NCBI RefSeq assembly: GCF_019599465.1
Contig: NZ_RKLR01000004.1
Location: 124,001-188,000, forward strand
Direction of reading: 5' to 3'
Source: Haloarcula rubra
GTDB lineage: Archaea; Halobacteriota; Halobacteria; Halobacteriales; Haloarculaceae
DNA: 64,000 nucleotides
The notes beneath the pieces were generated by a model. That model worked only from the letters and a program-made list of their open reading frames with translations. It ran no database searches and had not been told where the DNA came from. Below, piece by piece: positions 38,552-60,959 of the stretch; the stretch's first letter is position 1, and each line of letters opens with the position of its first letter. The translations under genes were made by a program, and so were the position numbers.

Positions 38552-38621
38552 CTCCAATTTCACCCGGATGGAAATTACGAGGAGCATAGAGCTACTGCAA
38601 CCAAATTCCTTAGCAGTGAAT

Positions 38622-38636
38622 GGTGTACTAAACACC
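38622..38636. promoter_or_regulatory. Inverted repeat in the promoter region of the left arm
   Basis: GGTGT-ACTAA-ACACC is a perfect inverted repeat 17 bases before the first start codon of the left arm (GTG 38653). The centre contains TACTAAAC, which would serve as TATA box at the right distance for a leaderless transcript. GGTG/CACC half-sites also form the larger palindrome at 58807, so one regulator could act on both; this is inference. The sequence from 38552 to 38652 has no gene. Confidence 0.4.
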
Positions 38637-39863: not shown

Positions 39864-40381
39864 GTAGTACCACGGAGCTGGCCGACCCGAAGGCCATCGG
39901 CCTCGACGTTGAGGACCTCGTCGTCGGCACCGTCGATGCGCTTGCAGCCGCCGAAGACGACGATGCCCATCACGACGCTGTCGTGACCGAGCTACTCTGT
40001 CCGTCGCTCGTCGACGCCGACGTGCCTGTCGTGTTCTGTGGGACGCCGCTCGTGCCCGTGGGCGCCCACGTCGAGATCAAGGCGTGCAAACGCTGGACCA
40101 GCGACGGACCGGGTCGGTCCCGCGGTCGGTGGGTGCTGAAAGGTCGTGACGACGGCCAGCACGCCGCGCTGCTGGACGGCGCCAGCTACTACGCGCTGGC
40201 CGTCTACGAGACGACCCCCGGCGATGAGCGCGTGCTGGTCGCGATTGCTGTAATCCCGGCATCGCTCCTAGACGAACACCTGCGTGGTCGGTGGCGCGAG
40301 ACCGACCGTCGCGAGGGCACGCTCGCGAAACTCGGGTGGCCGCACCTGCTCGGCCGCGTTCTCGGGGGTGAGCCGGCGTGA
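39860..40381 (+). CDS. Possible PD-(D/E)XK-type nuclease
   Basis: 173 aa, GTG start overlapping the preceding stop. VDADVPVVFCGTPLVPVGAH precedes VEIKACKRW: an Asp followed about 20 residues later by Glu-x-Lys, the active-site arrangement of restriction-endonuclease-like folds. Then GRWVLKGRDDGQHAALLDG and SYYALAVYE complete a plausible alpha/beta core. It directly overlaps the methyltransferase gene, so it may be a partner nuclease or a recombination/resolvase-type enzyme. The catalytic motif is seen; the activity is inferred. Confidence 0.45.
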   Translation: MSSTTELADPKAIGLDVEDLVVGTVDALAAAEDDDAHHDAVVTELLCPSLVDADVPVVFCGTPLVPVGAHVEIKACKRWTSDGPGRSRGRWVLKGRDDGQHAALLDGASYYALAVYETTPGDERVLVAIAVIPASLLDEHLRGRWRETDRREGTLAKLGWPHLLGRVLGGEPA

Positions 40382-41874: not shown

Positions 41875-42470
41875 TGCCGTCGACGCACCAGGGCAGCGAG
41901 ATCCGCGAGCGGTTGCGCTGTCCCGACCTCGCCGACCGTCTGGGCGAAGACCCGGCCCGCTGGCTGGATCAGGACCTCATGGCCCGGTCGACGAGACGAC
42001 AGATCGATCACGAAGGCACGGGTCCCCAGCAGGTCCGCCTCGTCGAGGACCGGGACGTCACGACCGCGGCGATGGTCGTGTTCTCGCTCATCGACGGCAT
42101 CGACACGATCGAGCGGGTCCGTATCTGGAAAGCGGTCGAACGACGGCTGGCGAACGACCGGTACGACTCGGCGGTCGACCTCGAGGAGCCTCGCGGGGCG
42201 GTCATGCACCGGCTGGACCAGCGCGAAGAGTGGCTTCGGTTGCATGGCGAGCGGCCCGACCGGCTCCCGCACGGCCCACGCCGGCCGTGTGAGTGTTGCG
42301 AGGACGAGAGCGGTGTCACTGCTGGCGACCTTCGGGAACGCGACGCGGCAGCTGCCGAACGGCTCACCGAGGGGTACTCGCGGGACGGCGTCGACACGAG
42401 TGAGACCACACCGGAGACCGAGGCAGCGACGCTCGGTGAGTACGCGACCGACGGAGGTGCGTCGGAGTGA
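41874..42470 (+). CDS. Element-encoded hypothetical protein with a Cys cluster
   Basis: 198 aa; charged, mostly helical. LRCPDLADRLGEDPARWLDQ, DRDVTTAAMVVFSLIDGIDT and RVRIWKAVERRLANDR suggest two helical bundles. PRRPCECCEDESG near residue 140 has three Cys in four residues. The last 50 residues are acidic and Thr/Glu rich. It overlaps the methyltransferase stop (TGATG) and the next gene's start. No family recognised. Confidence 0.55.
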   Translation: MPSTHQGSEIRERLRCPDLADRLGEDPARWLDQDLMARSTRRQIDHEGTGPQQVRLVEDRDVTTAAMVVFSLIDGIDTIERVRIWKAVERRLANDRYDSAVDLEEPRGAVMHRLDQREEWLRLHGERPDRLPHGPRRPCECCEDESGVTAGDLRERDAAAAERLTEGYSRDGVDTSETTPETEAATLGEYATDGGASE

Positions 42471-47385: not shown

Positions 47386-47486
47386 ACCTGCGTGCGTCGA
47401 CGCCCACACGCCGGACACCAATCCGTCGACTGTTCAGCCGCACAGCGGACGCACGCGACCAGTGGCACCTCGAACGGCACACTCAC
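47382..47486 (-). CDS. Very small zinc-ribbon protein in the right arm
   Basis: 34 aa with GTG start at 47486. SVPFEVPLVACVRCAAEQ then STDWCPACGRRRTQV gives C-x2-C and C-x2-C knuckles, a minimal zinc ribbon. The GTG overlaps the TGA of the upstream gene and the stop overlaps the downstream ATG, consistent with operon coupling and supporting its reality. Confidence 0.55.
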   Translation of the reverse strand: MSVPFEVPLVACVRCAAEQSTDWCPACGRRRTQV

Positions 47487-47824
47487 GGCATGTCGACCTC
47501 CCGGACGCGCTGGGCGTAGGCGGCGACCAGCACGACGAGGCCGGCGACGATCGTCTCGGCGGGCACCTCCGACGGCAACAGCGGGACGTTCCCCGCCGCG
47601 ACGGGGGCGATGATCAGCCCGACGCCGAGGACCCACAGCAGTTTCCCCGGCGTCGGCGCGGCGACCGAGTCCAGCACGATCATGCCGAGGCCACCCACCG
47701 CGAGGGCGACGCCGATCACGACCGGCGCCAGTCCGTCCACGAGGAGATCCCCGACCACCGCGACGGGCAGCGCCGCCACCAGCATCGCGGTCGCGAGCTT
47801 CGCGAACACGCTACTGTTTGCCAT
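47483..47824 (-). CDS. Four-TM hypothetical membrane protein
   Basis: 113 aa, hydrophobic over most of its length with helices at about 8-30, 33-52, 62-78 and 85-105. Ala/Val/Gly rich, few charges. Start ATG at 47824 overlaps the adhesin stop. Resembles small integral membrane proteins of the element's particle module, but no family is recognised. Confidence 0.6.
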   Translation of the reverse strand: MANSSVFAKLATAMLVAALPVAVVGDLLVDGLAPVVIGVALAVGGLGMIVLDSVAAPTPGKLLWVLGVGLIIAPVAAGNVPLLPSEVPAETIVAGLVVLVAAYAQRVREVDMP

Positions 47825-49530
47825 CAGCGGCTCCTCCCGACGAGGTTGCTCACCGTCTGACCGATGTTTCCGTTCCCGAAGCGTCGGTACGCGAGGACGG
47901 CCGCGCCGGCCAGCAGGCCCACGCCGGCGACCGTCGAAGCCGTGCCGCCACCGCCGCCCGTCCCGGTCGGGCCGAACGCGGAGCCGCCGCCGAGCGTCCC
48001 CGAGAGGTCCGTCGTTCCGTTGAACGCCGTCCCGTTCGCGTACTCGCCGGAGTAGTCCAGCGTCGGGTTCTCGACCTGCGAGGCGTTGTTCGTCACGCTA
48101 TCCGAGAGTTGGCCCTGATAGAACCGCGTCGGGTCGTCGAACTCGCGAGTACCGTTGTATACCGGGTCGCCGCTCTCGTTCCGAATCGTGTAGTCGAACT
48201 CCTCGACGGGTTCCGGCGATTGGACCGTGACCGCGGTGCCGTTGCCGGTCAGCGACGACTCCAGTTCCGCGAACCGGACGTCGAGGCGTTCGTCGAGTGT
48301 CGGCGTCGCCGTCCCGTTCGTCTCTGTGGTCGCTCGCTTCGGCGCGTTGATGATGAACGTCGCCTGCTGGATCGACTTGACGGCGATGAACCCTTTTGTC
48401 TCCCACACTGCCGGTTCGTCGCTGATGATCGTGAAGTTGTACGTCTTGCCGTCTAAGAGGTTCACGAACGCCTTCGTGTTGTGGTTGAACGATGTGACCG
48501 AGACTGTGCCGTCCGGGCGCTCGGTGTACAGTTTCAGATCGTCGGCGAAGAGGTCGTTCTCGGTCCGGTCGTCGAGGCCGAACTCCATCTCGAAGCGGTC
48601 GGTGTCGACCATCGCAAAGTCGACGCCTGTGACGTCGCTACCCGATACCGTGACGTTCTGGGAACTGTTCTTGTAGCCCGATTTCGACGCCGTGATCTCG
48701 TAGTCGCCGTCCTTCAACGAGAACGAGTAGTAGCCCGTGGCGTTCGTTGTCGTCGACTTGCCGGTGTCCGTTTCAACCGTGGCGTTTTCGAGTGCGTTGC
48801 CGTCAGTGTCCGTGACAGTTCCGGAGACTTTGGAGGTCGAGGGTTGTGCGTTACCGACGATATTGTCGATAACCATGTGGGGTCCTTGATAGGTCCGCTG
48901 GTCCCAATTGACCGCTCCGATACTATTCCCATTCTGGTAAAACGCGATAGAATTGCTTTCAGAAATTAAATTTCCGGACGTGTCGTAAGCCGCCACCGTG
49001 TAGCTGTTTGAACCGTAATCCGGTCGGAAAAAGACCCTAACGTGTTCTTCTGTTGGGAAAGTAACGTTGGTATCGTACCACGATGAACCATCATAGTACC
49101 GAATAGTTACGCTCCCACTCCCCGCGTTATAGCGATTATACATTAGTTTGTTCCCGTCCACTTGGTCCCACAATCCTTGTCCGACTTCTTGACTCCCCGC
49201 CTCGAAATAAACCCACATTGAGATATTGTCGAACGACCCGGAGTTATGGAAAGAGCCTTCCATATACTCCTTACTGTGGAGCTCTAAAGCGTAGTCGTCG
49301 TTAACGGTGTGGTTCGTCGTTATCCGACCAACATCGTTTATTGAACAACTACCGTCGCAATGGTACTCATTCAAATCTCCGTCTGCAAATTGGTCCAAAT
49401 CCGTCCCGCCATAGGGAGTAGGAGAGCTTGCCGCTCCCGCAATTTGGGCCGCTCCAGATGCTATCAACAGTATCGCGATGCCGCCGGTTTTCAGTAGCTT
49501 TTGCCAATCTCTATCATCTTTGTTTGTCAT
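47824..49530 (-). CDS. Large secreted adhesin-like protein with lectin-like and carboxypeptidase-regulatory domains and C-terminal TM
   Basis: 568 aa surface protein, candidate receptor-binding protein of the element. Signal peptide about residues 12-34. Residues 41-229 look like a concanavalin-A/LamG-type beta sandwich (DQFADGDLNEYHCDG, MWVYFEAGSQEVGQGLWDQV, HMVIDNIVGN). Residues 233-305 are a carboxypeptidase regulatory-like domain (VSGTVTDTDGNALENATV, GYYSFSLKDGDYEITASKSG). A Thr/Asn-rich region with N-glycosylation sites follows, then a TM helix and basic tail (AYRRFGNGNIG) that anchor it. Base composition changes at about 48840, the boundary of the first domain. Confidence 0.75.
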   Translation of the reverse strand: MTNKDDRDWQKLLKTGGIAILLIASGAAQIAGAASSPTPYGGTDLDQFADGDLNEYHCDGSCSINDVGRITTNHTVNDDYALELHSKEYMEGSFHNSGSFDNISMWVYFEAGSQEVGQGLWDQVDGNKLMYNRYNAGSGSVTIRYYDGSSWYDTNVTFPTEEHVRVFFRPDYGSNSYTVAAYDTSGNLISESNSIAFYQNGNSIGAVNWDQRTYQGPHMVIDNIVGNAQPSTSKVSGTVTDTDGNALENATVETDTGKSTTTNATGYYSFSLKDGDYEITASKSGYKNSSQNVTVSGSDVTGVDFAMVDTDRFEMEFGLDDRTENDLFADDLKLYTERPDGTVSVTSFNHNTKAFVNLLDGKTYNFTIISDEPAVWETKGFIAVKSIQQATFIINAPKRATTETNGTATPTLDERLDVRFAELESSLTGNGTAVTVQSPEPVEEFDYTIRNESGDPVYNGTREFDDPTRFYQGQLSDSVTNNASQVENPTLDYSGEYANGTAFNGTTDLSGTLGGGSAFGPTGTGGGGGTASTVAGVGLLAGAAVLAYRRFGNGNIGQTVSNLVGRSR

Positions 49531-49827
49531 TTAGTGTAGCACCTCCGAAACTCGATTGACGAACTGTCCAACCGCCGACACGGCACTCCCGACGTCGACG
49601 ACGCCGCTGTACGTCCCGACGACCGCCAGTACCAGCACGACGAACCCGATGAGCGAGAGCACTCGCGAGTACCGAGCGAGGACCACGAACGCGTCGGCGG
49701 CCTCTCGCAGGTACCACAGGCCGACGACGACCGCCGCCAGCCCGCCGATGGCGACGCCCTCGACGCCGACGTGACTCGCCAGCAGTTCCAGCAGCGATTT
49801 CACGAGCTCGTAGACGACGGCAGCCAT
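49531..49827 (-). CDS. Three-TM hypothetical membrane protein
   Basis: 98 aa, ATG at 49827 (GTG 49830 in frame). Predicted helices at about 20-38, 45-60 and 63-80; the C-terminus is amphipathic (VSAVGQFVNRVSEVL). Stop directly precedes the adhesin ATG. Preceded by about 195 bases without a gene, the only sizeable gap in the arm apart from that at 55.2 kb. Confidence 0.6.
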   Translation of the reverse strand: MAAVVYELVKSLLELLASHVGVEGVAIGGLAAVVVGLWYLREAADAFVVLARYSRVLSLIGFVVLVLAVVGTYSGVVDVGSAVSAVGQFVNRVSEVLH

Positions 49828-49980
49828 CACGCGGACGCACCTCCGCAGTACTGTGTGCGCGTGCCCCCGGGGGGCCGCTCGTGTCCTATCGGAGTAACGC
49901 GCGCGTGCGAAGCCGAAATCTCGACCGGCTTCTCGCGGCCGCTCGACCCCGATTTCGGTTTTCGACCCCTGCCCCCTGCT

Positions 49981-50009
49981 CGCTCAGATTTTTTAAAAAT
50001 TTCTGAGCG
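49981..50009. repeat. AT-rich inverted repeat after the ATPase gene
   Basis: CGCTCAGA (49981-49988) is repeated inverted as TCTGAGCG (50002-50009), enclosing TTTTTT and AAAAA runs. It lies 13 bases past the end of the ATPase gene and 154 bases before the next start. It could be a terminator/processing hairpin or a promoter for the adhesin group; the sequence does not decide. Confidence 0.45.
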
Positions 50010-50022
50010 AACAGCGATTTGC

Positions 50023-51420
50023 TCAAGCACTGCCGACCGCCTCCTGCCAGTTCAAAAAGTCGATGCTGACCTCGGCGTCCAGTCGGGCATCGCCCTTCAT
50101 GTTCGGCCACTTGAGTTTCGCAAAATTCGGCGCCTTCCACGGCATCCCTTCGCCAGTGTCCATGTCCGAGGTCAGGTCCTCGTTCAGTGGACACGAGCGG
50201 TCGCCGGGCAGCGTTCGGCCCAGTGGCGGCGAGTTACCGTTCATGGTCAGCCGCCAGCGAATCTTCTGGCGGGCGAACCGATGGACTTCACTCAGTGCGT
50301 GGGCCTGGTAGGAGAACGAGAGCCCCTTTTTCCGGGCGTCGGCGTACTTGTTCCTGAACCACTTGATCTTGTCATAGTGTTCGTGTGCGTCTTTCTCGGC
50401 GTCGGCGTCGAGGATGTTCCCCGCTTCGTCGAGGTTGATGAACGTCGGATGCACGAACACGTCGCCCGTGATCCGGTGGGCGACGAACGCGAACCACCAG
50501 TGATCCGCGTCAGTCGGTTTCGTCGGCCCGTCCTCGTCGACGGGCGTCGTCATCCGGTAGTCGAAGAAATTGAACTTCGAGACGTCGCGACAGCCTCGAT
50601 GCAACGGGTCGGGGAAGACGACGTAGAACTGCCCGGGCAGCAGCTGGCTCATCAAGTCCTGCACCGACTCGTAACGGATGACGTCCCGCGTGATGTCTTC
50701 TGGGCGGACCTCGAACTCGTCGACGCCGTGGGCTTCGGGCACGATCCGGACCCGCGTGTTCATCCCCTCGGGAATGGCTAGCGTCGCGTAGGGTGCGAGT
50801 GCCAACCATTCGGTCCGCTCGTTCGTCCCCGACTCGTCGACGGACTCGGCCCAGATGCAGGTCTCGTTGTTGACCTGCATCCGCCACATCACCATCGACA
50901 GTGCCAGCGTCGTCTTGCCGCCGCCGGGCTCGCCGTGGATGAACATGTCGGTCCCTTTCACCGCGCCGATCCGGTTGACCCGGCTCGGCTTGTCGGCGAT
51001 CCACTCGAAGACTTTCGCTCGATACGGCGGGTAGCGCTCCAGTGCCTCGTGAGAGAGGCGGGCGTTGTCCGGGTGGTAGTCCACCTTCCCGGCCAGTGCC
51101 CGGAGGAGTTCGAGATCGCGTTCATCCGTGTAGACGAGGGCGTCGACGAACGCCTCTGGATGTTGGGCGATGGACATGGGGACGCCCTCGGCGTCGTGGA
51201 GATACTGGTGGAGCGGCTTCTTGCCGAACCGCTTGTGGATGTCCTCGCCGTCGTTGTGGTTCTTCGCCGCCGGGTCGCCCAGCGCCTGACACGACGTCGT
51301 GTGTGGCTCCGTGAGCGTCCGTAGCTGATCCCGGATCTGGGGCTGTGAATCCGCCTTCTCCGGGAGTATCTGTTCGCTGATCGTCTGTGACTCTGCGCTC
51401 TCGTATGGTATCTGACTCAT
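50023..51420 (-). CDS. P-loop ATPase of the right arm
   Basis: 465 aa. Walker A FIHGEPGGGKTTLALSMVMW (residues 160-179, core GEPGGGKT) and a hydrophobic strand ending TFINLDEAGN (about 326-335) as Walker B. The remainder is helical with LSFSYQAHALSEVHRFARQK near the end, similar to the sensor part of FtsK/HerA-like or viral packaging ATPases. No TM helix. Probably energises DNA loading or assembly of the particle. ATG 51420 overlaps the upstream stop by one base. Confidence 0.7.
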   Translation of the reverse strand: MSQIPYESAESQTISEQILPEKADSQPQIRDQLRTLTEPHTTSCQALGDPAAKNHNDGEDIHKRFGKKPLHQYLHDAEGVPMSIAQHPEAFVDALVYTDERDLELLRALAGKVDYHPDNARLSHEALERYPPYRAKVFEWIADKPSRVNRIGAVKGTDMFIHGEPGGGKTTLALSMVMWRMQVNNETCIWAESVDESGTNERTEWLALAPYATLAIPEGMNTRVRIVPEAHGVDEFEVRPEDITRDVIRYESVQDLMSQLLPGQFYVVFPDPLHRGCRDVSKFNFFDYRMTTPVDEDGPTKPTDADHWWFAFVAHRITGDVFVHPTFINLDEAGNILDADAEKDAHEHYDKIKWFRNKYADARKKGLSFSYQAHALSEVHRFARQKIRWRLTMNGNSPPLGRTLPGDRSCPLNEDLTSDMDTGEGMPWKAPNFAKLKWPNMKGDARLDAEVSIDFLNWQEAVGSA

Positions 51421-52187
51421 CACCAATCAGGTTGCTCCGTGTCGTTTCCAGCGCCTTTCTCGGGCAGTTCGCCAGCCCGGCCGATGCGCACGCGGACGCC
51501 AGCTCTGAACTTCGGGAGGAGGTGCGTAGCCGCGAAGAGCCGCCGCGACCGCTCGTGCTCTGGCCTGTCGCCGGTCAGCACGTCGACGGTCGCGCCCTCC
51601 TGATAGACGCGCTTGCCCCACTCTGCGCCGAGTTCGCCGTGCGTGGCATCCAGCACGTCGCTACTCCAGCCGATAACGGCCGGCTTGTCGTCGAGGCCCT
51701 CGAGTAACTCGGCCAGTACCGACTGTTGAAGCTGGTCGAGTTCGGTCAGCCCAGGTCGCATCCCGATGTGCTTCTGCTGGCGTGGGTCGTGCGTGTCGCC
51801 CTCGTCAGCAGATTCGACGTACTCGGTCACGTCGTTCCGGAGTTTCCGGAAGGCGTTGCGGTGGGCTGGCTGGACGTGGGTGACGAGGATGCGCTCGCGA
51901 ACGTCCTTCGCAACCGCTTCGTCGAGGTCGCGCATCGGTCCCCGGCGTGCCGACGGCCGGAGCATCGCCCCGAGGAGAAGGCCCTGTTGACCGCGGAACT
52001 GGCGGGCCATGTCAGCGTACATCCGGCGGTCGAGACGGCCGAGCGTCCGGACCGTCATCTCCTGGAGCCACTCCAGCACGCGGTCTTCCGAGCGGAGGCC
52101 CGCCCGGAGTTCGTCGGCGCGGTCGCGCACGTTCGTTTTCAGCGTGACCAGTGCGGGCGTGTACGACGAGTCCTGCGCGTCACTCAT
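51420..52187 (-). CDS. Charged helical protein, function unknown
   Basis: 255 aa. Start at MSDAQDSSYTPAL (52187), overlapping the upstream stop. Strongly helical with Arg/Asp/Glu patterns: RADELRAGLRSEDRVLEWLQ, AHRNAFRKLRNDVTEYVESA, TELDQLQQSVLAELLEGLDD. No TM. Its C-terminal part (AAVIGWSSDVLDATHG is near, HLLPKFRAGVRVRIG later) could be a small globular domain. Placed between the polytopic protein and the ATPase, as an adaptor would be. No family recognised. Confidence 0.55.
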   Translation of the reverse strand: MSDAQDSSYTPALVTLKTNVRDRADELRAGLRSEDRVLEWLQEMTVRTLGRLDRRMYADMARQFRGQQGLLLGAMLRPSARRGPMRDLDEAVAKDVRERILVTHVQPAHRNAFRKLRNDVTEYVESADEGDTHDPRQQKHIGMRPGLTELDQLQQSVLAELLEGLDDKPAVIGWSSDVLDATHGELGAEWGKRVYQEGATVDVLTGDRPEHERSRRLFAATHLLPKFRAGVRVRIGRAGELPEKGAGNDTEQPDW

Positions 52188-53880
52188 CGTTATCACCCTC
52201 ATCGGCAGCCAGCGAGCCGTTCGTCGCCTCGCGGCGGTGATCGGTCACGCTCTCGTCGGTGTCGTCGTTCCGGATCGCCGCCGGCACCTCGCCGTCGGGA
52301 TCGTAGGACTCCTCGATGAGCGTGCGGTCGTGGTCGGCGACCTTCTCGTCGATTGCGCGTTGCTTGCGGACGCGTTCCCGGTCGAGTTGGTCTTTGACCT
52401 CTTCGAGGTGTTTCGCGTCGTCGACGTCCTCGGCGAACTGGACCATCGTTCCGAACGCCGAGCGGAGATGCATCGGCGCCGGACGGACCGCGGCCTTGCC
52501 GTCGACTGGCGTCGCCAGCCACACGAGAAGGCCCATCGTCGTGACGGTCGTGACTGGCCAGAACGACGCCAGCCCGTAGTGGACCGACCCGATAGCCAGA
52601 ACGATAGCGCCGACGATAGCCAGCCACTCACCGCCGTGGTCGCGGTCCAGCGGCGGCCAGTCGATCGTCCAGTGCTCTGGCTCGTAGAACAGCAGTTTCT
52701 CGCTCTCTGGGTCGACGACGAACATCTCGTCCCATTTCGACCCCTCTTTCAGCGGCACGCGCGTCCGGAGTTGTTCGACGTTCGCGAGTCGAGCGCTCTT
52801 GCCGAAGACGCGGGCGAGGAAGGGGAACAGACCCGATTTCACGACTGCGACGCCGTGCTCGGTCCGGACGATCTTCTCCACATCCATCTCGCCGTCGATG
52901 ATGTCGTAGGAATTCTGCCCCTCACGAGTCGGGCTCTCGGCGTGTTCGAGCGTGGGGCGGAAGAACACCGCCTTGCTGACGTTGTTCGTGTACGTCTCCA
53001 GCAGGATGATCGCAAACAGCCCCACGACGTACAGTGAGACGACGTACTGGGCGTTTACGACGAGCGACGCCACGCCTTCGTAGAAGAGCAGGCCACCGAG
53101 GCCAGTCCCCAACGAGAGGGCGATGATCCACGGCGTATAGCCGTACTGCGGGCCGATTCCTGCTTTGTCGAGTCCCTGTTTGCAGAGCCAGCCGACGGCG
53201 AACCCACCGACGACGATGATCGCTAGGAAATCGACGATGACGCTGGCGATGTAGTCACCGGCACTGTTGATGTCCACGGACTGCGTGGTAGCGATGCTCT
53301 TGTGTCTGAAGTTCGCCCATCGCGCGTACTCTTTGCCCTCGATCCACATCGTCACGCGGACTGCCTCGTCGTGCTGGCGGAGTGGGATCTTCACCGTGGG
53401 CCGCCCTCGCTCGAACGTGACGTCGTGCGTGACGTGCGTGACGTTCTTCGCGACTGGGACCGTCGTGGTCGTGTTGCCGCGCTGGACCGTCTTCTGGCCT
53501 TTCTCCCAGTAGGCGACGTGGACGGTCTCCTGCTGGTCGCCGTAGGTCCAGGTGCGGAGATACACGGCGTTCCGGCCGACCGTGTGGCCGGGCGGCAGGT
53601 ACTCGCCGCTATCGGTCGCACCGGGGTTGGCGAAGGGGTTGTTGGCCGGCCAGTAGACGACCCAGAAGAACTGGTCCTGGCCCATCCGGACGCTCGGTGG
53701 GGAGTTCGCCTGTCGCGGGCCAGTCTGGGTGAGGTCGTCGAGGGTCAGGCCACTCTCGTCGCTGGCGCTGGCGTTGCCGGCCGTCTCGTTCCCGACCTGT
53801 TGGGCGTCGACGGCGCCGACGACCGGTGAGAGGACCAGCAGGCCGACCAGCGCCAGCAGCGCGATGGGTGCCCGGCTCAT
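52180..53880 (-). CDS. Secreted-ectodomain polytopic membrane protein with C-terminal coiled coil
   Basis: 566 aa. Signal peptide (residues 1-26), an ectodomain to about 205 containing FFWVVYWPANNPFANPG and HVAYWEKGQKTVQRGN with N-glycosylation sites, then three TM helices (about 210-300), a cytoplasmic region (KIVRTEHGVAVVKSGLFPFL and FVVDPESEKLLFYEPEHW), two further TMs (about 425-470), and a charged coiled coil (LEEVKDQLDRERVRKQRAID). The layout suits a scaffold or DNA-to-membrane coupling protein. It overlaps both neighbours. Confidence 0.6.
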   Translation of the reverse strand: MSRAPIALLALVGLLVLSPVVGAVDAQQVGNETAGNASASDESGLTLDDLTQTGPRQANSPPSVRMGQDQFFWVVYWPANNPFANPGATDSGEYLPPGHTVGRNAVYLRTWTYGDQQETVHVAYWEKGQKTVQRGNTTTTVPVAKNVTHVTHDVTFERGRPTVKIPLRQHDEAVRVTMWIEGKEYARWANFRHKSIATTQSVDINSAGDYIASVIVDFLAIIVVGGFAVGWLCKQGLDKAGIGPQYGYTPWIIALSLGTGLGGLLFYEGVASLVVNAQYVVSLYVVGLFAIILLETYTNNVSKAVFFRPTLEHAESPTREGQNSYDIIDGEMDVEKIVRTEHGVAVVKSGLFPFLARVFGKSARLANVEQLRTRVPLKEGSKWDEMFVVDPESEKLLFYEPEHWTIDWPPLDRDHGGEWLAIVGAIVLAIGSVHYGLASFWPVTTVTTMGLLVWLATPVDGKAAVRPAPMHLRSAFGTMVQFAEDVDDAKHLEEVKDQLDRERVRKQRAIDEKVADHDRTLIEESYDPDGEVPAAIRNDDTDESVTDHRREATNGSLAADEGDNDE

Positions 53881-54104
53881 GTCGTGGTGAGCTCCTCCAC
53901 GTACCGAGCGCGTCTGTCGACCCGTTTCAGCGCCACCAATAGGCCCAGCACTGCGAGGACGGCGAACCCGGTCAGCGCGTACTGGCCGGCCGCCGCGGTC
54001 GCCGCACCGATGTACGCCGCCGCGCCGAGACTGGTGAGCGTCGCGATCGCCTCCGGCGCGATCTGTGGGTGGGTCAGCGTCGCCAGCGAGTACGGGGCAG
54101 TCAT
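53877..54104 (-). CDS. Small two-TM membrane protein
   Basis: 75 aa. Helices at about 22-40 and 43-60, then a basic C-terminus (ALKRVDRRARYVEEL). ATG 54104 overlaps the upstream stop. Similar in size and layout to other members of this arm; no named family. Confidence 0.55.
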   Translation of the reverse strand: MTAPYSLATLTHPQIAPEAIATLTSLGAAAYIGAATAAAGQYALTGFAVLAVLGLLVALKRVDRRARYVEELTTT

Positions 54105-54343
54105 GCGACCACCACCCCGACGTCGAGGGCGGTCGACACGGACTGTGCCATCACTTCGGCCCCGCGCTCGATGATGACTGCCGGCCCGCCGCCGATGGAT
54201 TGCGCGAGACCGTTCACGAACTCGCCGAACGCCCGGCCGGCGTCGCCGCCCCAGTTGAAGATGCCGTCCAGCAGGTTCTGGACGCCACTCGGGACGGCGT
54301 CGGGGAGTGTCGGCGCCCCGCCAGGGCCGCCCTTAGGTGGCAT
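54101..54343 (-). CDS. Small amphipathic protein of the right arm
   Basis: 80 aa, starting MPPKGGPGGAPTLPDAVP. FNWGGDAGRAFGEFVNGLAQ and IIERGAEVMAQSVSTALDVG suggest amphipathic helices and weak membrane association, not a clear TM. Start lies inside the end of the upstream gene. Unknown function. Confidence 0.5.
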   Translation of the reverse strand: MPPKGGPGGAPTLPDAVPSGVQNLLDGIFNWGGDAGRAFGEFVNGLAQSIGGGPAVIIERGAEVMAQSVSTALDVGVVVA

Positions 54344-54812
54344 CGTCCACCTCCGCCGTGCGGATAGCTTCAGTCTCGACGTGGCCGACGAGGAGCCGAC
54401 TCTCGGCGTCGGCAGCCGCACACTCGCCGGAGCAGTAGGTCCACTCGCGCCGATTCCGCTCCGTGACGACCGTTAGCGGGCCGACGCTGGCCCGTCGCGG
54501 TGTACCCGATGCACGGACCTCCACGAACTCACTGACGCCGTCGCGACTCGACTGCGACCGGATGTGCCCGCCGCACGCCTCGCAGTGTGCCTCACACTCC
54601 GGTAGGCCGTTATCGTAGGCCAGCATGGCACCGATGAGTGCGAAGAACCCACCAGCGACGAGGCCGACGAGCGGGTCATTCCCGAGCATGACCCACTCGA
54701 CAAGCGCCTTTCCGATGGCCCACAGGCCGACGCCAGCGATCACGAGTCCCAACCAGCCACCGAGCGAGAGGTCCGACAGTCGGACGTCGTCGAACTCGAC
54801 GAGGTCAGACAT
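54333..54812 (-). CDS. Two-TM protein with cytoplasmic zinc finger
   Basis: 159 aa. TM helices at about 19-37 and 47-65 (GWLGLVIAGVGLWAIGKAL, GLVAGGFFALIGAMLAYDNG). Then ECEAHCEACGGHIRSQ and a later WTYCSGECAAADAESR: Cys pairs and His that may bind zinc. Begins eight bases within the preceding gene's end. Confidence 0.55.
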   Translation of the reverse strand: MSDLVEFDDVRLSDLSLGGWLGLVIAGVGLWAIGKALVEWVMLGNDPLVGLVAGGFFALIGAMLAYDNGLPECEAHCEACGGHIRSQSSRDGVSEFVEVRASGTPRRASVGPLTVVTERNRREWTYCSGECAAADAESRLLVGHVETEAIRTAEVDDAT

Positions 54813-55188
54813 ACTCGTCCACCTCCACGACGAGGAAGACGAGGCCGATGAGCGCCAGTGCGATGCCGACGTACTGGGACACGGTGAGCGAGATCGCGCC
54901 CGACAGCGCTCCAGCGCCGAGGCCACCGACCGCGAAGTTACTCACGAAGTACGGGTGACTGACGACGAACTCGATAGCCATGCCGACGAGGTCGCCGAAC
55001 TGGACGAGGCCCATCATCACGGCACCGCCGACAGCCATCGCGATGGCCGTTACCCACTGCGTGGTTCGATCCCACGAGACGCTGAGATCCTCGCTCCGGG
55101 CATACGCGACGGCGAACCGGAGGAGGAACACGGTGCCGAGGATGGCGACGAACGCGCCGATGCCGGCCACCGGATCCATCGTTGGCAC
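54805..55188 (-). CDS. Four-TM membrane protein, similar in shape to pleolipovirus VP3
   Basis: 127 aa from GTG 55188, or 124 aa from ATG 55179. Helices at about 8-25, 43-62, 72-90 and 98-120. The GTG overlaps the stop of the small upstream frame (TAGTG). Size and four-helix layout resemble small integral membrane proteins that line the inside of pleolipovirus particles; no sequence signature proves the link. Confidence 0.55.
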   Translation of the reverse strand: MPTMDPVAGIGAFVAILGTVFLLRFAVAYARSEDLSVSWDRTTQWVTAIAMAVGGAVMMGLVQFGDLVGMAIEFVVSHPYFVSNFAVGGLGAGALSGAISLTVSQYVGIALALIGLVFLVVEVDEYV

Positions 55189-55274
55189 TATCGGCCACCT
55201 CCCGGCCCGCTGTTGGTTCGCCCTCTCCGTGAGGGGATTCGATCCGTTCGTTTCGTGTGTGTCGTGTGTTTCAT
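55188..55274 (-). CDS. Very small basic peptide frame
   Basis: 28 aa, MKHTTHTKRTDRIPSRRG then a Gly-rich end. Its ATG overlaps the upstream TGA (ATGA) and its TAG overlaps the downstream GTG (TAGTG). That double coupling is the only reason to consider it real. A basic peptide could bind DNA. Confidence 0.3.
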   Translation of the reverse strand: MKHTTHTKRTDRIPSRRGRTNSGPGGGR

Positions 55275-55558
55275 CTATTGTTGAACCACTTCTGAGCCCG
55301 GTCAAGGCCCTTGTCGGCGAGAATGACGACGTACAGCACCGCGGCGGCGACGAGAAGTTTCGTCCCGAGTTCCGCATAGCCGAGTTCCGGGAGAATCGTC
55401 GCCGCCGTCGTCGCGACTGCTGGGAACCAGTAACCCGACGTCGCCGACAGCAGGCCCCAGAGCGGGTCGAACAAGCCGAGGCCGAGGCTCCCGAGTGCGC
55501 TCAGGATCACCGCCCCGCCTGTCAGCGGATGTAGTACGAGATTTTTGAGTCGTTCCAT
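55271..55558 (-). CDS. Three-TM membrane protein
   Basis: 95 aa beginning MERLKNLVLHPLTGGAVIL. Helices at about 13-28, 35-53 and 66-83; basic tail DKGLDRAQKWFNNR. ATG 55558 is 3 bases from the upstream stop. Unknown function. Confidence 0.55.
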   Translation of the reverse strand: MERLKNLVLHPLTGGAVILSALGSLGLGLFDPLWGLLSATSGYWFPAVATTAATILPELGYAELGTKLLVAAAVLYVVILADKGLDRAQKWFNNR

Positions 55559-55560
55559 GG

Positions 55561-55992
55561 TCAGGTCCCGGGAATCAGCATGTACAGCTTCCAGGCGATC
55601 GCCGGCAGGCGTTTCAGCAGCTCCCAGCCGAGGTACACGAGCACGGCCGTGAACCCGACTGCGAGTATCGGTGCGGCCCATCCAGCGCTGGCTATTACCC
55701 CCGCAATCGCCTGCTGGACCGCTGAGTACGCACCGAGCAGATCGACACCGAGTGCGCCGAACACGTTGATGAGCGTCACGCGGATGACGTCGAACGTGCC
55801 AGCGACGACGTCGAACATCGCCAGAATCGTGTTCACGCCGAAGGCGCCGACGTTCAGCACCGCGTTGATGATGTACGCCGAGATGATGCTCCCGACGAAC
55901 GCTACCGGATTCGTGGCGAACTGAAACAGCGTCTTCGCGACGCTTTTCGGCGCTCTCAGCGTGAACAGTGTCTCAGTGTCGTCAGCGGACAC
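55561..55992 (-). CDS. Multi-TM membrane protein
   Basis: 143 aa. A cytoplasmic N-terminus (MSADDTETLFTLRAPKSVA) is followed by hydrophobic segments near 28-48, 55-80 and 100-125, ending LKRLPAIAWKLYMLIPGT. It overlaps the upstream gene by 11 bases. No conserved family recognised; likely a structural membrane component. Confidence 0.55.
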   Translation of the reverse strand: MSADDTETLFTLRAPKSVAKTLFQFATNPVAFVGSIISAYIINAVLNVGAFGVNTILAMFDVVAGTFDVIRVTLINVFGALGVDLLGAYSAVQQAIAGVIASAGWAAPILAVGFTAVLVYLGWELLKRLPAIAWKLYMLIPGT

Positions 55993-56326
55993 GAGACACC
56001 ACCCACGCTATTGGAAACAGCGTTGCCAGCACGATCATCAGCGCCACGACGTAGCCGGCAATCCCGGCGTCGGCGACGTACGGTATCGCCGCCGCGAACC
56101 CGCGGTTGATTATGACCGCCGGCAGGCCGTAGACGACGCCGACCGCCGTCGCAGCGAACTCGGTGAGGCCGGACAGCAACTCTAACGGGACGTTGACCAG
56201 CGACAGAAACGCCGAGATAGTCCCTCGGAAGTACGCGAGGATGCTCGCCCCGAAAATGAGGGTCAGCAACCGCCCCCAGCGGATCGAGACGCCGTTCTCG
56301 GCGATGTAGTCGCTGATTTCGACCAT
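55982..56326 (-). CDS. Multi-TM membrane protein
   Basis: 114 aa. Segments at about 18-38, 50-72 and 88-110 (GYVVALMIVLATLFPIAWVV). N-terminus MVEISDYIAENGVSIRWGRL is amphipathic. Adjacent genes overlap. Unknown function. Confidence 0.55.
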   Translation of the reverse strand: MVEISDYIAENGVSIRWGRLLTLIFGASILAYFRGTISAFLSLVNVPLELLSGLTEFAATAVGVVYGLPAVIINRGFAAAIPYVADAGIAGYVVALMIVLATLFPIAWVVSRVR

Positions 56327-56327
56327 G

Positions 56328-56780
56328 CTATCCCTCTTCCTCTTCTTCGGAGTCGGTCCAGCCCGGCGTCGGCACGTCGAAGCCCGTCCCGATCAACGGG
56401 AAGAAGTTCGTCGTGTCCTCCTCGCTGATGTACGCCAGCAGGACGTAGAACGCCAGCAGGACAATGGCGAACCCGAAGACGAACGACAGCGGGCTGGCGA
56501 ACCGGCCACCCGGGCCAATCGAGAGTGCGCTGGCGATAGCCCCGAAGTTGATGATCTGGGCCGTCCCACCGAATACCGCGTTGATGAGGTCGCCTGCGGC
56601 GGCGATGAACGCCTGCGTCGGGACGATGAACACGTCTGCCAGCGTGAAGATGCCACTGGCGAGCGCCGCGCCGAACGCGAACAACACGGCGCCGATCCCC
56701 TGGAAGAGGACGGCACCGATGCTGCCCGCGTTGGCCGCCCGGTCGAACAGACTCCGGACTCGTGGCCCACCAGCCGACAC
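56328..56780 (-). CDS. Multi-TM membrane protein with acidic tail
   Basis: 150 aa. Hydrophobic segments at about 20-45, 50-75 and 100-122 (LSFVFGFAIVLLAFYVLLAY), and an acidic C-terminus ending in a run of Glu. Lies two bases after the spike-like gene's stop. Possibly interacts with the spike-like protein; unknown. Confidence 0.55.
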   Translation of the reverse strand: MSAGGPRVRSLFDRAANAGSIGAVLFQGIGAVLFAFGAALASGIFTLADVFIVPTQAFIAAAGDLINAVFGGTAQIINFGAIASALSIGPGGRFASPLSFVFGFAIVLLAFYVLLAYISEEDTTNFFPLIGTGFDVPTPGWTDSEEEEEG

Positions 56781-56782
56781 GA

Positions 56783-58273
56783 TCAGGACCCTCCGAGCTT
56801 CCGTTTCAGGCCCACAGCGCCGAGGATGACGCCGACGACGCCGGTTACCTGTGCCCAGATGGACGAGAAGAACCCGCCGCCGGACGTCCCGGTCGGACCA
56901 CCGGCCAGCGACTGCAGGATCGTGTCGATCTCCTCGTCCTGATAGAGGATGACCATGTGGACACGGTAGTTCGTATCAGCGCTGGCGTCGGCGACGAACG
57001 TCGCCGTCGAGCCCTGCGACCCCAGCGTGTCCGTGACGCTCGCGTAGGCGCCGTCCTGGTCGGTCAGGTTGCCGAACTCTTCGTCGGTGTCGGTGCCGGT
57101 CGCCACCTCTGCGATAGCGTAGCGGGACTCGACGAGGCCCTGTTCGAACTCCAGCGTGATCGTGCCGTGGCTCAAGTCGATGGCCGACGGCACCTCCATG
57201 TCCGCGTACAGTTCCAGCTTCTGCGGGTAGTTGTAGTCGTCCGCCGATGAGACGTTCGTTGAGTACTCGTCGGAGTCCGTGATGTCCGAGAGCTGGTACT
57301 GGACGTCGTAGACGTGCAGGTCGTTGATGACCGCGTCGTCGTAGATACCGCCCAGCGTGTCGAGGTCGGTGATGTTCGCGACGCCGCCCTCGTAGTAGTT
57401 CGTGACCGTCGTCGTCTCGAGCTCGCCGTCGCCGTCAGTGTCGCGTTCGATCTCCGCGAGGTCGGCCTCGCTCTTCTTGTCCAGATCGAGGCCGGCCATC
57501 GTAACGGTCACGTCGTTGTCGACGCCGACGATCTCGACTTTCTGGATGCCGTCGAAGCTGCCGTCACCGCTGCCGGCCAGCGGGAGGTTCGCCAGCTTCT
57601 CGGCGAACACGATGCCGTTGCCCGTGCTGTTGGCGGCGATGTCTTCGGCGGACGCGTCGGCCGAGCCGTTGATCTCGGCGTAGCGGTAGTCGCCATCACT
57701 GTCGACGGCGCGGATCTCGGCCGTTCCCGAAAGCGTGTCGACGTTCAAGACCGTCGTCAGCACGCGCTTGTTGGGGTCCGAGTCGATGGACACGTTGTCG
57801 GCGTAGGTCGCCGTCGCGGTCTCGCCGCTGGCGATGGTAGCCGCGAACTCCAGCTTGTCGACGCCGTCAGCGTCGGCGTCGCTGACCGACATGGACGAAG
57901 ACGCTCCGGAGGATGTCGTCCAGTCCGATGCGACGGTCCAGTTCGCGGAGTTCGACGACTCCCCATCGATGCGCGGGAACAGGTGATACGCGTCGGCGTC
58001 GATCTGGTCGAAGCGAACGCCGACAGGCGTGTCCTGTGACTGGTTGACCGTCGCCGGCAGCGAGGTCAGTTCACCGGAGTCGTTGTAGTACTGTGTTGCC
58101 GAGGACATCTCCGAGTTATCCCACTCGTCGATGACGAGTTCATCCTCGACGGCTGTCGGGTTCGGCGCTTTGTCCGAATTGAAGTTCAGGCCGGGCGCCG
58201 CGGTGGCGGTGCCGGCGATGGGCGATGCGATAACGGTCAGAGTGAGGAATACGGCGAGTATTGCGCGTCTCAT
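56783..58273 (-). CDS. Spike-like secreted membrane-anchored protein
   Basis: 496 aa, likely the main surface protein of the element's particle. Signal peptide (AILAVFLTLTVIASPIAGTA, about 4-25), a 430-residue acidic ectodomain with many N-glycosylation sites (NQS, NWT, NVS, NGS, NST, NIT, NLT), and a C-terminal TM (SSIWAQVTGVVGVILGAVGL) with a short basic tail (KRKLGG). This is the plan of pleolipovirus spike proteins (about 500 aa, C-terminal anchor, followed by small membrane proteins). Sequence identity to them cannot be judged here. Confidence 0.65.
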   Translation of the reverse strand: MRRAILAVFLTLTVIASPIAGTATAAPGLNFNSDKAPNPTAVEDELVIDEWDNSEMSSATQYYNDSGELTSLPATVNQSQDTPVGVRFDQIDADAYHLFPRIDGESSNSANWTVASDWTTSSGASSSMSVSDADADGVDKLEFAATIASGETATATYADNVSIDSDPNKRVLTTVLNVDTLSGTAEIRAVDSDGDYRYAEINGSADASAEDIAANSTGNGIVFAEKLANLPLAGSGDGSFDGIQKVEIVGVDNDVTVTMAGLDLDKKSEADLAEIERDTDGDGELETTTVTNYYEGGVANITDLDTLGGIYDDAVINDLHVYDVQYQLSDITDSDEYSTNVSSADDYNYPQKLELYADMEVPSAIDLSHGTITLEFEQGLVESRYAIAEVATGTDTDEEFGNLTDQDGAYASVTDTLGSQGSTATFVADASADTNYRVHMVILYQDEEIDTILQSLAGGPTGTSGGGFFSSIWAQVTGVVGVILGAVGLKRKLGGS

Positions 58274-58539
58274 TCGTTCTCTGGGCGGTTCCGGTCGCTA
58301 CCCGTGGTTGGCTGGTCGGTGCCGCCGTCTGTGGCTGGCGACGGGATCGGGTGGTCTATGTCGGCTTTCGCCCGATCGACGGCGCTTCGGGCACCCTGCT
58401 GGCCGGCGACCCAGAGCGTCCCCAGCACGAGCGGGAGTGCCAGCAGCACTGCCGACAGGCCGGCCCAGTTCGCCGTAGCGAGGATGGACGCGATGGTCGC
58501 GTAGCCGGCCAGATGGACGAGGGTGGCGCGGTCGTTCAT
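58270..58539 (-). CDS. Small two-TM membrane protein upstream of the spike gene
   Basis: 89 aa. Helices at about 6-25 and 28-46 (LSAVLLALPLVLGTLWVAGQ), then a polar tail rich in Asp/Thr/Pro. Start MNDRATLVHLAGYATI at 58539, overlapping its upstream neighbour; its stop overlaps the spike start. Confidence 0.55.
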   Translation of the reverse strand: MNDRATLVHLAGYATIASILATANWAGLSAVLLALPLVLGTLWVAGQQGARSAVDRAKADIDHPIPSPATDGGTDQPTTGSDRNRPENE

Positions 58540-58712
58540 GTGTCACCCGCGAGGAGTTCGGCGGCGAGGTCGCGGCTGGCGCCGGCCGCCTCACGGCGTG
58601 CTCGCTCGCGCCTTCGCTCGTCGACGTTTCGCCACTCGGTTCGGAACGGTCGATTCGCGGTCTCGGCCGCGCTGTCCGGTGGTTCGTCGCCACCGGACGT
58701 GTGGTCGGTCAT
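58536..58712 (-). CDS. Small charged protein, first gene of the right arm
   Basis: 58 aa starting at MTDHTSGGDEPP (58712). The C-terminal half is a highly charged helix (RNVDERRRERARREAAG, then ASRDLAAELLAG). The TATA-like TATTTAC (58793-58801, minus strand) implies a leader of about 55 bases, unlike the leaderless genes elsewhere. An in-frame ATG at 58805 would overlap that promoter. Confidence 0.5.
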   Translation of the reverse strand: MTDHTSGGDEPPDSAAETANRPFRTEWRNVDERRRERARREAAGASRDLAAELLAGDT

Positions 58713-58806
58713 GGGTAGGGGTACAGGCCCGCGGTTCGACCGCGGGTTGCCCGCGAATGCGAGTCTCAGGCCATATACCCGCCGCTGAGTACACAGTAAA
58801 TACACC

Positions 58807-58820
58807 GCTGGTGCACCAGC
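58807..58820. promoter_or_regulatory. Perfect palindrome between divergent promoters (probable operator)
   Basis: GCTGGTGCACCAGC is its own reverse complement. On the minus strand it is next to the TATA box of the right arm (TATTTAC, 58793-58801), where BRE would be. On the plus strand it lies about 18 bases before the TATA box (GTTTAATAAC, about 58838-58847) of the AbrB-like gene. A protein bound here could block or balance both promoters. Confidence 0.6.
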
Positions 58821-58867
58821 GTCACCATAGAAGATACGTTTAATAACCTAGATATGTCTCCTCCACT

Positions 58868-59125
58868 ATGCAGAAGCTCCAGAACCGGAACGGATCTGGT
58901 GTGGTGACCGTGCCGAAGAATTTCCTCGACCGCGACGGCCTCCTTGACGAGGACGGCGAACCGGACGAGTCGCATCTCACTGTCGATCGGTTGGGAGAGC
59001 GTGCCTACTTCGTCCGCGTGTGTGACGGCGACATTCCCGAACTCCACGAGTGTGAAGTCATTCAGCGTGTCGCCGCCGAGCGGATGCTCGAAGAGGACGT
59101 GTTCGGACGGCGGCAGGGCGAGTAA
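58868..59125 (+). CDS. AbrB/SpoVT-like regulator, candidate repressor of the element
   Basis: 85 aa. The N-terminus KLQNRNGSGVVTVPKNFLDR is a swapped-hairpin AbrB-type DNA-binding start, as in haloarchaeal virus and plasmid regulators. The rest (LTVDRLGERAYFVRVCDGD) continues the small beta fold and ends in a charged helix. Divergent from the particle arm with the 14-base palindrome between them. TATA box about 22-30 bases upstream. Most likely controls both promoters; this is inference. Confidence 0.65.
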   Translation: MQKLQNRNGSGVVTVPKNFLDRDGLLDEDGEPDESHLTVDRLGERAYFVRVCDGDIPELHECEVIQRVAAERMLEEDVFGRRQGE

Positions 59126-59149
59126 GCTTTCTACGAACAGACAACGAAA

Positions 59150-59881
59150 TCAGTCACTTATCTTGGCATACTGGCGTCTGGCCTTACGATTTGAATTGCG
59201 AACTGAATTGACAAAGAGATACACTGCTATCCAGAATCCGAGTGCATAGGCTATATGAGACAAGACAAATATCGCCAGTTCCAGCTCTAACTGTAGATTG
59301 AAGATTTCCGCTCCGGTGATGAGAAAAATCCCCCCGAACATTATTTGCGGAGAGAACCCTCTTTGCATAAACCAAAAGCGTGTGGATAGCCCCACGATAC
59401 TGATGATAACCGTGGCGACAGTCCAGTACAGTCGCACGGTATCCCGTATTCCGAGGTCTAAGCCACCCCAGATTGTGAAATAAATGACGCCCCACAGTGA
59501 CACAAGTAACAGGAACAGTATCAGGAGATGACCAGCGATCTTCCGCTTGAATCCACCGCCTGACGGGAGCGAGCCATTCGAAACGAAATTATAGACTTTA
59601 CGGTAGAAATTGACCGCGACCGCTCCCTGCATAAACGAACCAAGCAGGATGATTCCAACAACGACAGTGTTGAACGAGGCTGTCTCTCGTGCGCCCCAGA
59701 TCGTAAGTCCGGTTCCAATACCGAGTATGAGCGTACCGAGAACTCCTTTCGGAGCTTCTACAGCGAACTCACTATCGGGATCGATGAACGGCAGTCCCCA
59801 CGTAACAAGGACAGACCCAACAGTTACGAGAACTATCGCCAGCCACGGCGGGAAGTAATCAAAGAACCACGAGACGACCAT
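59150..59881 (-). CDS. Seven-TM hypothetical membrane protein
   Basis: 243 aa. ATG 59881 (MVVSWFFDYFPPWLAIVLV) overlaps the upstream stop. About seven TM helices; between TM3 and TM4 a basic loop (GGGFKRKIAG). C-terminal basic tail (RNSNRKARRQYAKI). No known family. The pair with the next gene is lower in GC than the particle arm, so it may be cargo, for example a superinfection-exclusion or defence-type membrane pair; this is conjecture. Confidence 0.55.
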   Translation of the reverse strand: MVVSWFFDYFPPWLAIVLVTVGSVLVTWGLPFIDPDSEFAVEAPKGVLGTLILGIGTGLTIWGARETASFNTVVVGIILLGSFMQGAVAVNFYRKVYNFVSNGSLPSGGGFKRKIAGHLLILFLLLVSLWGVIYFTIWGGLDLGIRDTVRLYWTVATVIISIVGLSTRFWFMQRGFSPQIMFGGIFLITGAEIFNLQLELELAIFVLSHIAYALGFWIAVYLFVNSVRNSNRKARRQYAKISD

Positions 59882-60362: not shown

Positions 60363-60959
60363 CTACAGAGAGATGTTATCGAACGCATCATCGATGACTG
60401 ACTCACTGGGTGCGTTCAGATACGGTTCTATCGCTGCGAAGCTCTCCCAGCCGCCGACTGCCATCACCACGCGTGGGTTCATCTGCTGGTCGACGAGGAG
60501 TCGTTGGGCGAACCGGCGGCGGAGATCGTGCGTGCTCACCTTCTCGAAATCGGCGTCGCCGGTCTCGTCGGCCGCTCGCTGGGCGGTCCGGCGGACCACG
60601 GCCCGGACGCCCGGCTGTGTCAGGTCGACGTACGGGTCTTTCGGTACGATGTTGTGCTCGTTCTGGTAGCGCTGGAGGTCGCGCTCGACGCTGTCGGGGA
60701 GGTAGGCGTCGCGTGGCTTCCCGCCGTTCCCGCTGGTGTCCTTGCCCGAGCGGACCCGGAGGCGGTACTGGTCGCTCTCGGTCTGTTTGACGTCGACGGG
60801 ACTGACTTGCGGGATTTCGAAGGCGCGCAGGCCGACGAACGCGCCCAGCTGGATGATGAGGTCGTCGCGCTGGCTGGTGGTCGCTCGGCGGAGGTCCTCG
60901 ATCTCGCTGTCGGTGAGCCAGACTTTGTGTTCGTTTCCATCGGTGGCTTCGATTCGCAT
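60363..60959 (-). CDS. int: Tyrosine recombinase / integrase
   Basis: 198 aa, compact catalytic-domain form without a core-binding N-terminal domain. Catalytic residues can be placed: Arg45 in GLRAFEI, Lys73 in VRSGKDTSG, His144 and Arg147 in THDLRRRFAQ, Trp171 at the second His position in AVGGWES, and Tyr180 in EPYLNAP. It would integrate and excise the element, and its nearest tRNA is tRNA-Pro, 22 kb away. Gene reads inward. It is short, so help from other DNA-binding proteins may be needed. Confidence 0.85.
   Translation of the reverse strand: MRIEATDGNEHKVWLTDSEIEDLRRATTSQRDDLIIQLGAFVGLRAFEIPQVSPVDVKQTESDQYRLRVRSGKDTSGNGGKPRDAYLPDSVERDLQRYQNEHNIVPKDPYVDLTQPGVRAVVRRTAQRAADETGDADFEKVSTHDLRRRFAQRLLVDQQMNPRVVMAVGGWESFAAIEPYLNAPSESVIDDAFDNISL

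What the first reader, a model, noticed from the sequence alone, without database searches (positions are those of the whole stretch)
58713..58867. A compact switch: AbrB-like gene, divergent promoters and a perfect 14-base palindrome
GCTGGTGCACCAGC sits between the TATA box of the particle arm and the TATA box of the regulator. Its place at the BRE of the particle promoter and close upstream of the regulator promoter suggests repression with autoregulation. The left-arm promoter also has a GGTGT/ACACC inverted repeat (38622-38636) that could be bound by the same protein.
Basis: partly seen in the sequence, partly recalled or inferred. Interest (0 to 1): 0.6.

Follow-up and report, generated by a model that had tools for sequence, protein, structure and literature searches.

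The report
Viral leader matching host S-layer mRNA

Summary
The palindrome exists (58807-58820; in full CGCTGGTGCACCAGCG, 58806-58821) between a divergent AbrB-like gene and the particle operon of a ~22 kb integrated Haloarcula element. It is locally unusual (0.3% of shuffles). Among 13 Haloarcula divergent regions it is exact only here, 13/14 in two others and absent in ten (mean identity of the block 0.24). It does not sit at the particle BRE: the conserved TATA is 26 bp away. The left-arm repeat is chance-level. 'Autoregulated palindromic operator' is therefore only weakly supported.

What is conserved lies closer to the particle genes: CTCAG at the BRE, TATA, then a rigidly placed hairpin CCCGC(G/T)G-N5-C(C/A)GCGGG (arms 0.96 identical, loop 0.27), then GTACCCCTACCC-ATG of the first gene. 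That 15-mer occurs otherwise almost only at the predicted 5' end of the S-layer glycoprotein mRNA (124 of 392 Halobacteriales genomes, usually one copy). In one genome, element and host share the same variant base. Hairpin and/or box persist where the divergent regulator is of another type. Most likely this is the leader of the particle mRNA, exploiting an S-layer-type expression signal; the AbrB-like protein probably controls the promoter, but its site is unknown.

The parts
58868..59125 (+). 85-aa AbrB-like divergent regulator gene
   Evidence: Relatives in 74/392 Halobacteriales genomes; PHROG 14267 E 9e-18; no Pfam or NCBIfam hit; residues 6-25 align to haloarchaeal AbrB/MazE domains, hhalign prob 46, E 2e-4
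58839..58846 (+). TATA box of the regulator promoter (TTTAATAA); start codon about 22 bp further, so probably a leaderless transcript
   Evidence: Aligned and conserved in 13 loci, mean identity 0.70
58806..58821 (.). Perfect 16-bp palindrome CGCTGGTGCACCAGCG (the reported feature)
   Evidence: exact in 1 of 13 loci, 13/14 in G247 and G348, 5 or more mismatches in the other ten
58783..58789 (-). CTCAGCG, conserved upstream neighbour of the particle TATA (BRE position)
   Evidence: CTCAG-like motif 43-44 nt upstream of the hairpin in 11 of 13 loci; mean identity 0.66
58771..58779 (-). TATA box of the particle operon (GGTATATGG); predicted transcription start about 58747-58749
   Evidence: TATA-like box at the same offset (about 31 nt) from the hairpin in all 13 loci; start inferred from the TATA distance of about 28 nt read off the S-layer promoters
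58750..58755 (-). Third arm CGCGGG, able to pair with the 5' arm of the hairpin; probably just outside the transcript
   Evidence: Changed together with both hairpin arms in G247 and G295, not kept in several other loci
58728..58746 (-). Leader hairpin / dyad CCCGCGG-TCGAA-CCGCGGG at the predicted 5' end of the particle mRNA
   Evidence: Arms kept in 13/13 loci plus G083, loop free; RNA fold -16.2 kcal/mol, z -2.25
58713..58724 (-). 12-nt box GTACCCCTACCC directly before the ATG, identical to the 5' end of the host S-layer mRNA leader
58536..58712 (-). First gene of the particle operon, 58 aa (MTDHTSGGDEPPDS...GASRDL), ATG at 58712
   Evidence: Family found with alignment A4 in the order; start fixed by conservation of leader plus ATG
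58270..58539 (-). Small predicted membrane protein, second gene of the particle operon
   Evidence: ORF list; tblastn hit in G324 only
56783..58273 (-). Putative structural protein with signal peptide, 496 aa
   Evidence: Homologs in 51/392 Halobacteriales genomes; no Pfam, NCBIfam or PDB sequence match
38622..38636 (.). Left-arm repeat GGTGT-N5-ACACC; judged chance
   Evidence: 1.17 comparable repeats per 100 bp; not conserved in four relatives

Best explanation
The region is the divergent control region of an integrated virus-like element of Haloarcula. An AbrB-like regulator is transcribed rightward and the particle operon leftward. Shown: the evolutionarily constrained signals are the two TATA boxes, a CTCAG element at the particle BRE, a GC-rich hairpin/dyad at a fixed position 3' of the particle TATA, and a 12-nt box immediately before the first start codon that is identical to the 5' end of the host S-layer mRNA leader; the palindrome is not part of this conserved set. 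Inferred: the particle mRNA begins 2-4 nt before the hairpin, so its leader is a 5'-terminal stem-loop plus the S-layer box. The box gives the particle operon the translation or stability property that the very abundant S-layer mRNA has, and the hairpin protects the 5' end or presents the box. The AbrB-like protein acts on this promoter pair through a site not yet identified.
For: In 13 Haloarcula loci the hairpin arms are 0.96 identical, the loop 0.27, the 12-nt box 0.71 and the palindrome block 0.24. Hairpin-to-ATG spacing is 13-15 nt and TATA-to-hairpin about 31 nt in all. GTACCCCTACCCATG occurs in 27/32 Haloarcula genomes, reversed-sequence control 0; the non-element copies there are S-layer leaders. 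Across the order it is in 124/392 genomes and 36/95 genera, and 22 of 23 sampled loci outside Haloarcula precede an S-layer signal peptide. NCBIfam identifies the gene as S-layer glycoprotein (NF041335, E 8e-38). In the S-layer promoters the box lies about 28 nt after TTTATAA, at the predicted mRNA start. G384 has the variant GTACCCCTACCTATG in both element and host S-layer leader. The box is kept where the divergent gene is another type (G083, G091, G201) and in an element of another genus with a different first gene (G372); hairpins of differing sequence precede it there (except G083, same stem), G372's stem holding a G-U pair. One stem pair changes on both sides in G247 and G295 although the G247 regulator is 91% identical.
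Against: The box is absent from the elements of G348, G394 and G218 and from Halorubrum-type elements, and G247 and G324 carry variants that their hosts' S-layer leaders do not share. No transcription start has been mapped; all mRNA ends are predicted from TATA distance. What the S-layer box does is unknown. Only one stem pair shows compensatory change; G091 and G372 leaders do not fold better than shuffles. The stem sequence, not just pairing, is conserved in Haloarcula, as expected also for a DNA operator.
Confidence: 0.6

Rival explanations
1. The conserved dyad CCCGCGG-N5-CCGCGGG (with its third half-site) is a DNA operator overlapping the start of particle transcription, bound by a dimeric protein such as the AbrB-like regulator or a host factor, and the RNA hairpin is incidental.
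For: Dyad with invariant arms and free centre at a fixed distance from the TATA and over the predicted start; arm sequence as well as symmetry is conserved; the third arm changes together with the other two in G247 and G295.
Against: The same dyad is kept beside a far-diverged regulator (G083, G218) and is changed beside a 91%-identical one (G247). Stems of unrelated sequence occupy the same place in G201, G091 and G372.
Confidence: 0.35
2. One reading: the palindrome is the operator of an autoregulatory AbrB-like repressor.
For: Perfect 16-bp palindrome between the two TATA boxes, P about 0.003 in shuffles; 13/14 matches in G247 (same place) and G348 (displaced), none reached by 300 shuffles.
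Against: Absent in 10 of 13 loci, including one with an 81%-identical regulator; lowest identity of the blocks measured; not at the particle BRE; left-arm counterpart is chance-level.
Confidence: 0.2
3. The match between the particle leader and the S-layer leader is coincidence.
For: It is only 12 nt plus the start codon, and flanks show no similarity; some elements in the same genus lack it.
Against: My composition-based estimate is about 0.01 chance copies per genome; the sole other copy is consistently the S-layer leader at its predicted 5' end; several separate elements keep it in the same register before the ATG; G384 element and host share the variant T.
Confidence: 0.12

Closest known systems
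LSV-48N, lemon-shaped virus of Haloferax (PP151251; PMC12714723)
   Same: Integrated element of similar size (24.9 kb) in a haloarchaeon, tyrosine recombinase, a homolog of window 42467-44101 (tblastn E 1e-36), and, per the paper, a predicted swapped-hairpin AbrB-like regulator.
   Different: No homolog of the window's structural proteins or of the 85-aa regulator at usable E-values; no GTACCCCTACC box in its genome.
C68 of the Sulfolobus plasmid-virus pSSVx (AbrB-like; Contursi 2011, cited in PMC12714723)
   Same: Small AbrB-like protein encoded by an archaeal virus-like element.
   Different: No credible sequence match of the window family to any solved structure; binding behaviour not tested.
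Haloarchaeal S-layer glycoprotein mRNA leader
   Same: GTACCCCTACCC before an ATG, downstream of a TATA box.
   Different: In the S-layer gene the box is at the predicted 5' end, usually followed by an upstream ORF of 28-41 codons and the S-layer start about 105 nt on; in the element a hairpin precedes the box and the ATG starts the first operon gene.
pR1SE-like haloarchaeal plasmids moved in vesicles (apHPVs, PMC10818511)
   Same: Haloarchaeal element with an operon of membrane/exported proteins and a packaging-type ATPase.
   Different: Not compared by sequence: the pR1SE record was not held.

Membership tests
AbrB/MazE (SpoVT-AbrB) transcription factors | Match to Pfam PF04014 or an NCBIfam AbrB model | tested here: not met
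   No family in Pfam at E 0.1 or NCBIfam at E 0.01
AbrB/MazE (SpoVT-AbrB) transcription factors | N-terminal 'xxGxVTxPKxxLxxxxL' hairpin similar to known members | tested here: inconclusive
   hhalign of A1 against 16 haloarchaeal PF04014 domains: 20 columns, prob 46, E 2e-4 for one comparison
AbrB/MazE (SpoVT-AbrB) transcription factors | Swapped-hairpin beta-beta-alpha-beta-beta fold | tested here: inconclusive
   Element order E-E-H-E-E-H predicted, but mean pLDDT 55 for the monomer
AbrB/MazE (SpoVT-AbrB) transcription factors | Sequence-specific DNA binding as dimer | not testable with these tools
   Needs protein and a binding assay
LSV-48N-type lemon-shaped viruses | Homologous structural proteins | tested here: not met
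   tblastn of window proteins against PP151251: only window 42467-44101 (E 1e-36) and the integrase (E 3e-5) match
Known phages/viruses in INPHARED | Homolog of packaging-type ATPase, 566-aa protein or regulator | tested here: not met
   No tblastn match
S-layer-type leader | GTACCCCTACCC immediately before an ATG and downstream of a TATA box | tested here: met
   Window 58710-58724 (-); 12/12 identical
S-layer-type leader | Box at the mRNA 5' end, no hairpin before it | tested here: not met
   In the element a hairpin lies between the predicted start and the box
Rfam RNA families | Match to a described leader or riboswitch family | tested here: not met
   No match in 58500-59200; nothing credible in S-layer loci

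The most novel reading that the evidence does not exclude
A family of integrated haloarchaeal virus-like elements has captured, or converged on, the 5'-terminal sequence of the host S-layer mRNA, a box conserved across much of the Halobacteriales, and puts it behind a 5' hairpin so that particle proteins are expressed like the host's most abundant surface protein. This would also expose an undescribed, deeply conserved expression signal in the S-layer gene itself.
Probability: 0.45. Interest if true: 0.75.

Novelty: new variant of a known kind. Interest (0 to 1): 0.5.

Why it matters
Little is known of how archaeal viruses ensure high late expression, and haloarchaeal translation largely does without Shine-Dalgarno signals. 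A short box found in S-layer leaders (the 15-mer occurs in 36 of 95 genera) and in viral particle operons gives a directly testable candidate for a leader signal that sets output of a very abundant haloarchaeal protein and that viruses exploit. It also shows that a visually striking palindrome can be a poor guide: the conserved element lay about 60 bp away.

Tried and rejected
Palindrome as conserved operator: aligned in 13 loci, kept in 3 at most. Left-arm repeat as second binding site: chance-level and not conserved. Relatives of the regulator in IMG/VR, phages and GTDB contigs by single sequence: none; plasmids gave three weak Halobaculum hits; whole-genome search and a closer alignment did find relatives. 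IMG/VR pattern hits for the box (L045-L057) show no significant similarity to the element's proteins and look like chance. Solved-structure search for the regulator gave only chance hits, and for the 496-aa particle protein two weak antibody hits. Hairpin as a terminator: no gene points into it from the right direction and no U-run follows (read from sequence). Covariation as proof of RNA pairing: too few changes (one pair, two sequences). Literature search for a described S-layer leader box found nothing in the held library, which is not proof that none exists.

Full report
Setting. The window lies on contig C32 of a 4.67 Mb haloarchaeal genome; its genus is Haloarcula, as matching loci are named Har. 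mannanilytica, rara, sebkhae and pellucida. The element runs from about the tRNA-Pro gene at 38481-38552 to past a tyrosine recombinase at 60363-60959 (Pfam Phage_integrase E 9e-10). Leftward genes 47483-58712 include a putative structural protein (56783-58273), a 566-aa membrane protein and a P-loop ATPase; these are syntenic in G247, G295 and G375 and found more distantly elsewhere. The structural protein has homologs in 51 of 392 Halobacteriales genomes, so this is a widespread family; the ATPase and the 566-aa protein have no match in the phage collection.

The observation. The 14-mer is exact and unique in the window and the genome and extends to 16 bp. Locally it is improbable (0.3% of shuffles contain such a palindrome). 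The left-arm repeat is not special. The BRE placement is wrong: alignment identifies GGTATATGG (58771-58779, minus) as the particle TATA, with a conserved CTCAG element where the BRE should be.

Conservation. I aligned 13 divergent regions from Haloarcula. Mean pairwise identities: hairpin arms 0.96 each, loop 0.27, 12-nt box 0.71, regulator TATA 0.70, CTCAG block 0.66, particle TATA 0.55, whole region 0.50, palindrome block 0.24. The best matches to the 14-mer are 0, 1 and 1 mismatches in G000, G247 and G348 (the last displaced), and 5-6 in the other ten, no better than shuffles. The palindrome is thus at best a lineage-limited site.

The hairpin. CCCGCGG-N5-CCGCGGG lies 13-15 nt before the ATG and about 31 nt after the first T of the TATA in every locus, so it would sit at the very 5' end of the particle mRNA. 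In G247 and G295 both arms (and the third arm) change together. In G083 the same hairpin is kept although its divergent gene is too diverged for tblastn. G201 and G091 have a different divergent protein (MSQT... type) and stems of different sequence; G218 has that protein type with a CCGCGG stem; G372 has a stem with a G-U pair. Covariation on the alignment is weak because the stem hardly varies. I favour an RNA element over a DNA operator by a modest margin.

The S-layer box. Searching GTACCCCTACCCATG in 32 Haloarcula genomes returned the elements plus, in nearly every genome, one further copy (27/32 genomes have a match; reversed control none). That copy precedes a short upstream ORF (mostly 28-30 codons) and, about 105 nt on, the S-layer glycoprotein gene (NCBIfam NF041335 and halo_sig_pep). 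In order-wide search the 15-mer is in 124/392 genomes and 36/95 genera, and 22 of 23 sampled loci are S-layer leaders. The upstream ATG is not essential: G324 has AAG in its place, so the constrained feature is the sequence at the mRNA 5' end. The host of this window has it too (L245). G384 carries the variant T at position 12 in both element and S-layer leader; G247 and G324 elements have variants their hosts do not share. My composition estimate gives about 0.01 chance copies per genome.

The regulator. 85 aa, PHROG 14267, no Pfam family. An N-terminal stretch resembles AbrB/MazE domains and predicted element order fits, but the model is poor (pLDDT 55). 'AbrB-like' is reasonable; membership is not proven.

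Mechanism. Shown: anatomy, conservation and the identity with the S-layer leader. Inferred: transcription starts, the function of box and hairpin, and any action of the regulator. Likely mechanism: the particle operon is transcribed from a TATA promoter under control of the divergent regulator, and its message carries a protective or presenting 5' hairpin plus an S-layer-type box that gives strong translation or stability. Two decayed cases fit with loss of constraint: G322 (regulator ATG lost, first gene broken, hairpin lost) and G348's two frameshifted copies with an imperfect hairpin; G384 keeps its hairpin despite a stop in the first gene.

Limits.

Noticed in passing
L223-L244, L192-L221 (S-layer loci), e.g. 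L206:1501-1620: The S-layer glycoprotein gene of many haloarchaea shares an almost invariant GTACCCCTACCC at the predicted mRNA 5' end plus a short upstream ORF; no description found in the held literature.
   Followed up: partly
L173, L174, L175 (G201, G091, G218): The divergent slot holds a different protein (MSQT.../MSRT..., 124-133 aa) while the first particle gene is the same family and, in G201 and G091, the 12-nt box too: the regulator module appears exchangeable.
   Followed up: partly
L040 and L042 (G348:C1:43478-46711 and 3030163-3033396): Two copies with identical upstream sequence and the same frameshifted regulator and imperfect leader hairpin in one genome; decayed duplicate elements.
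   Followed up: no
window 42467-44101: 544-aa protein homologous to LSV-48N CDS0026 (25% over 499 aa, E 1e-36), annotated there as transcriptional regulator; widespread in the related elements.
   Followed up: partly
window 40378-41874: DNA (cytosine-5) methyltransferase (TIGR00675, E 1e-30) in the early arm, found in only one of the related loci compared.
   Followed up: no
L073:13270-13440 (LSV-48N): The LSV-48N late-operon leader also has a strong dyad, ACCCTAAGACACGTCTTAGGGT, just after a TATA-like box, in different geometry.
   Followed up: no
L012 and L022 (G132, G183), upstream of the regulator: Another conserved dyad AGCCAGCC(C)(A/G)AGGCTGGCT 41-59 bp before the regulator start in this distant clade, a candidate regulator operator of its own.
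   Followed up: no
window 38400-61200: No direct repeat of 20 nt or more joins the tRNA-Pro end to the integrase end; the attachment sites and exact right end remain undefined.
   Followed up: no
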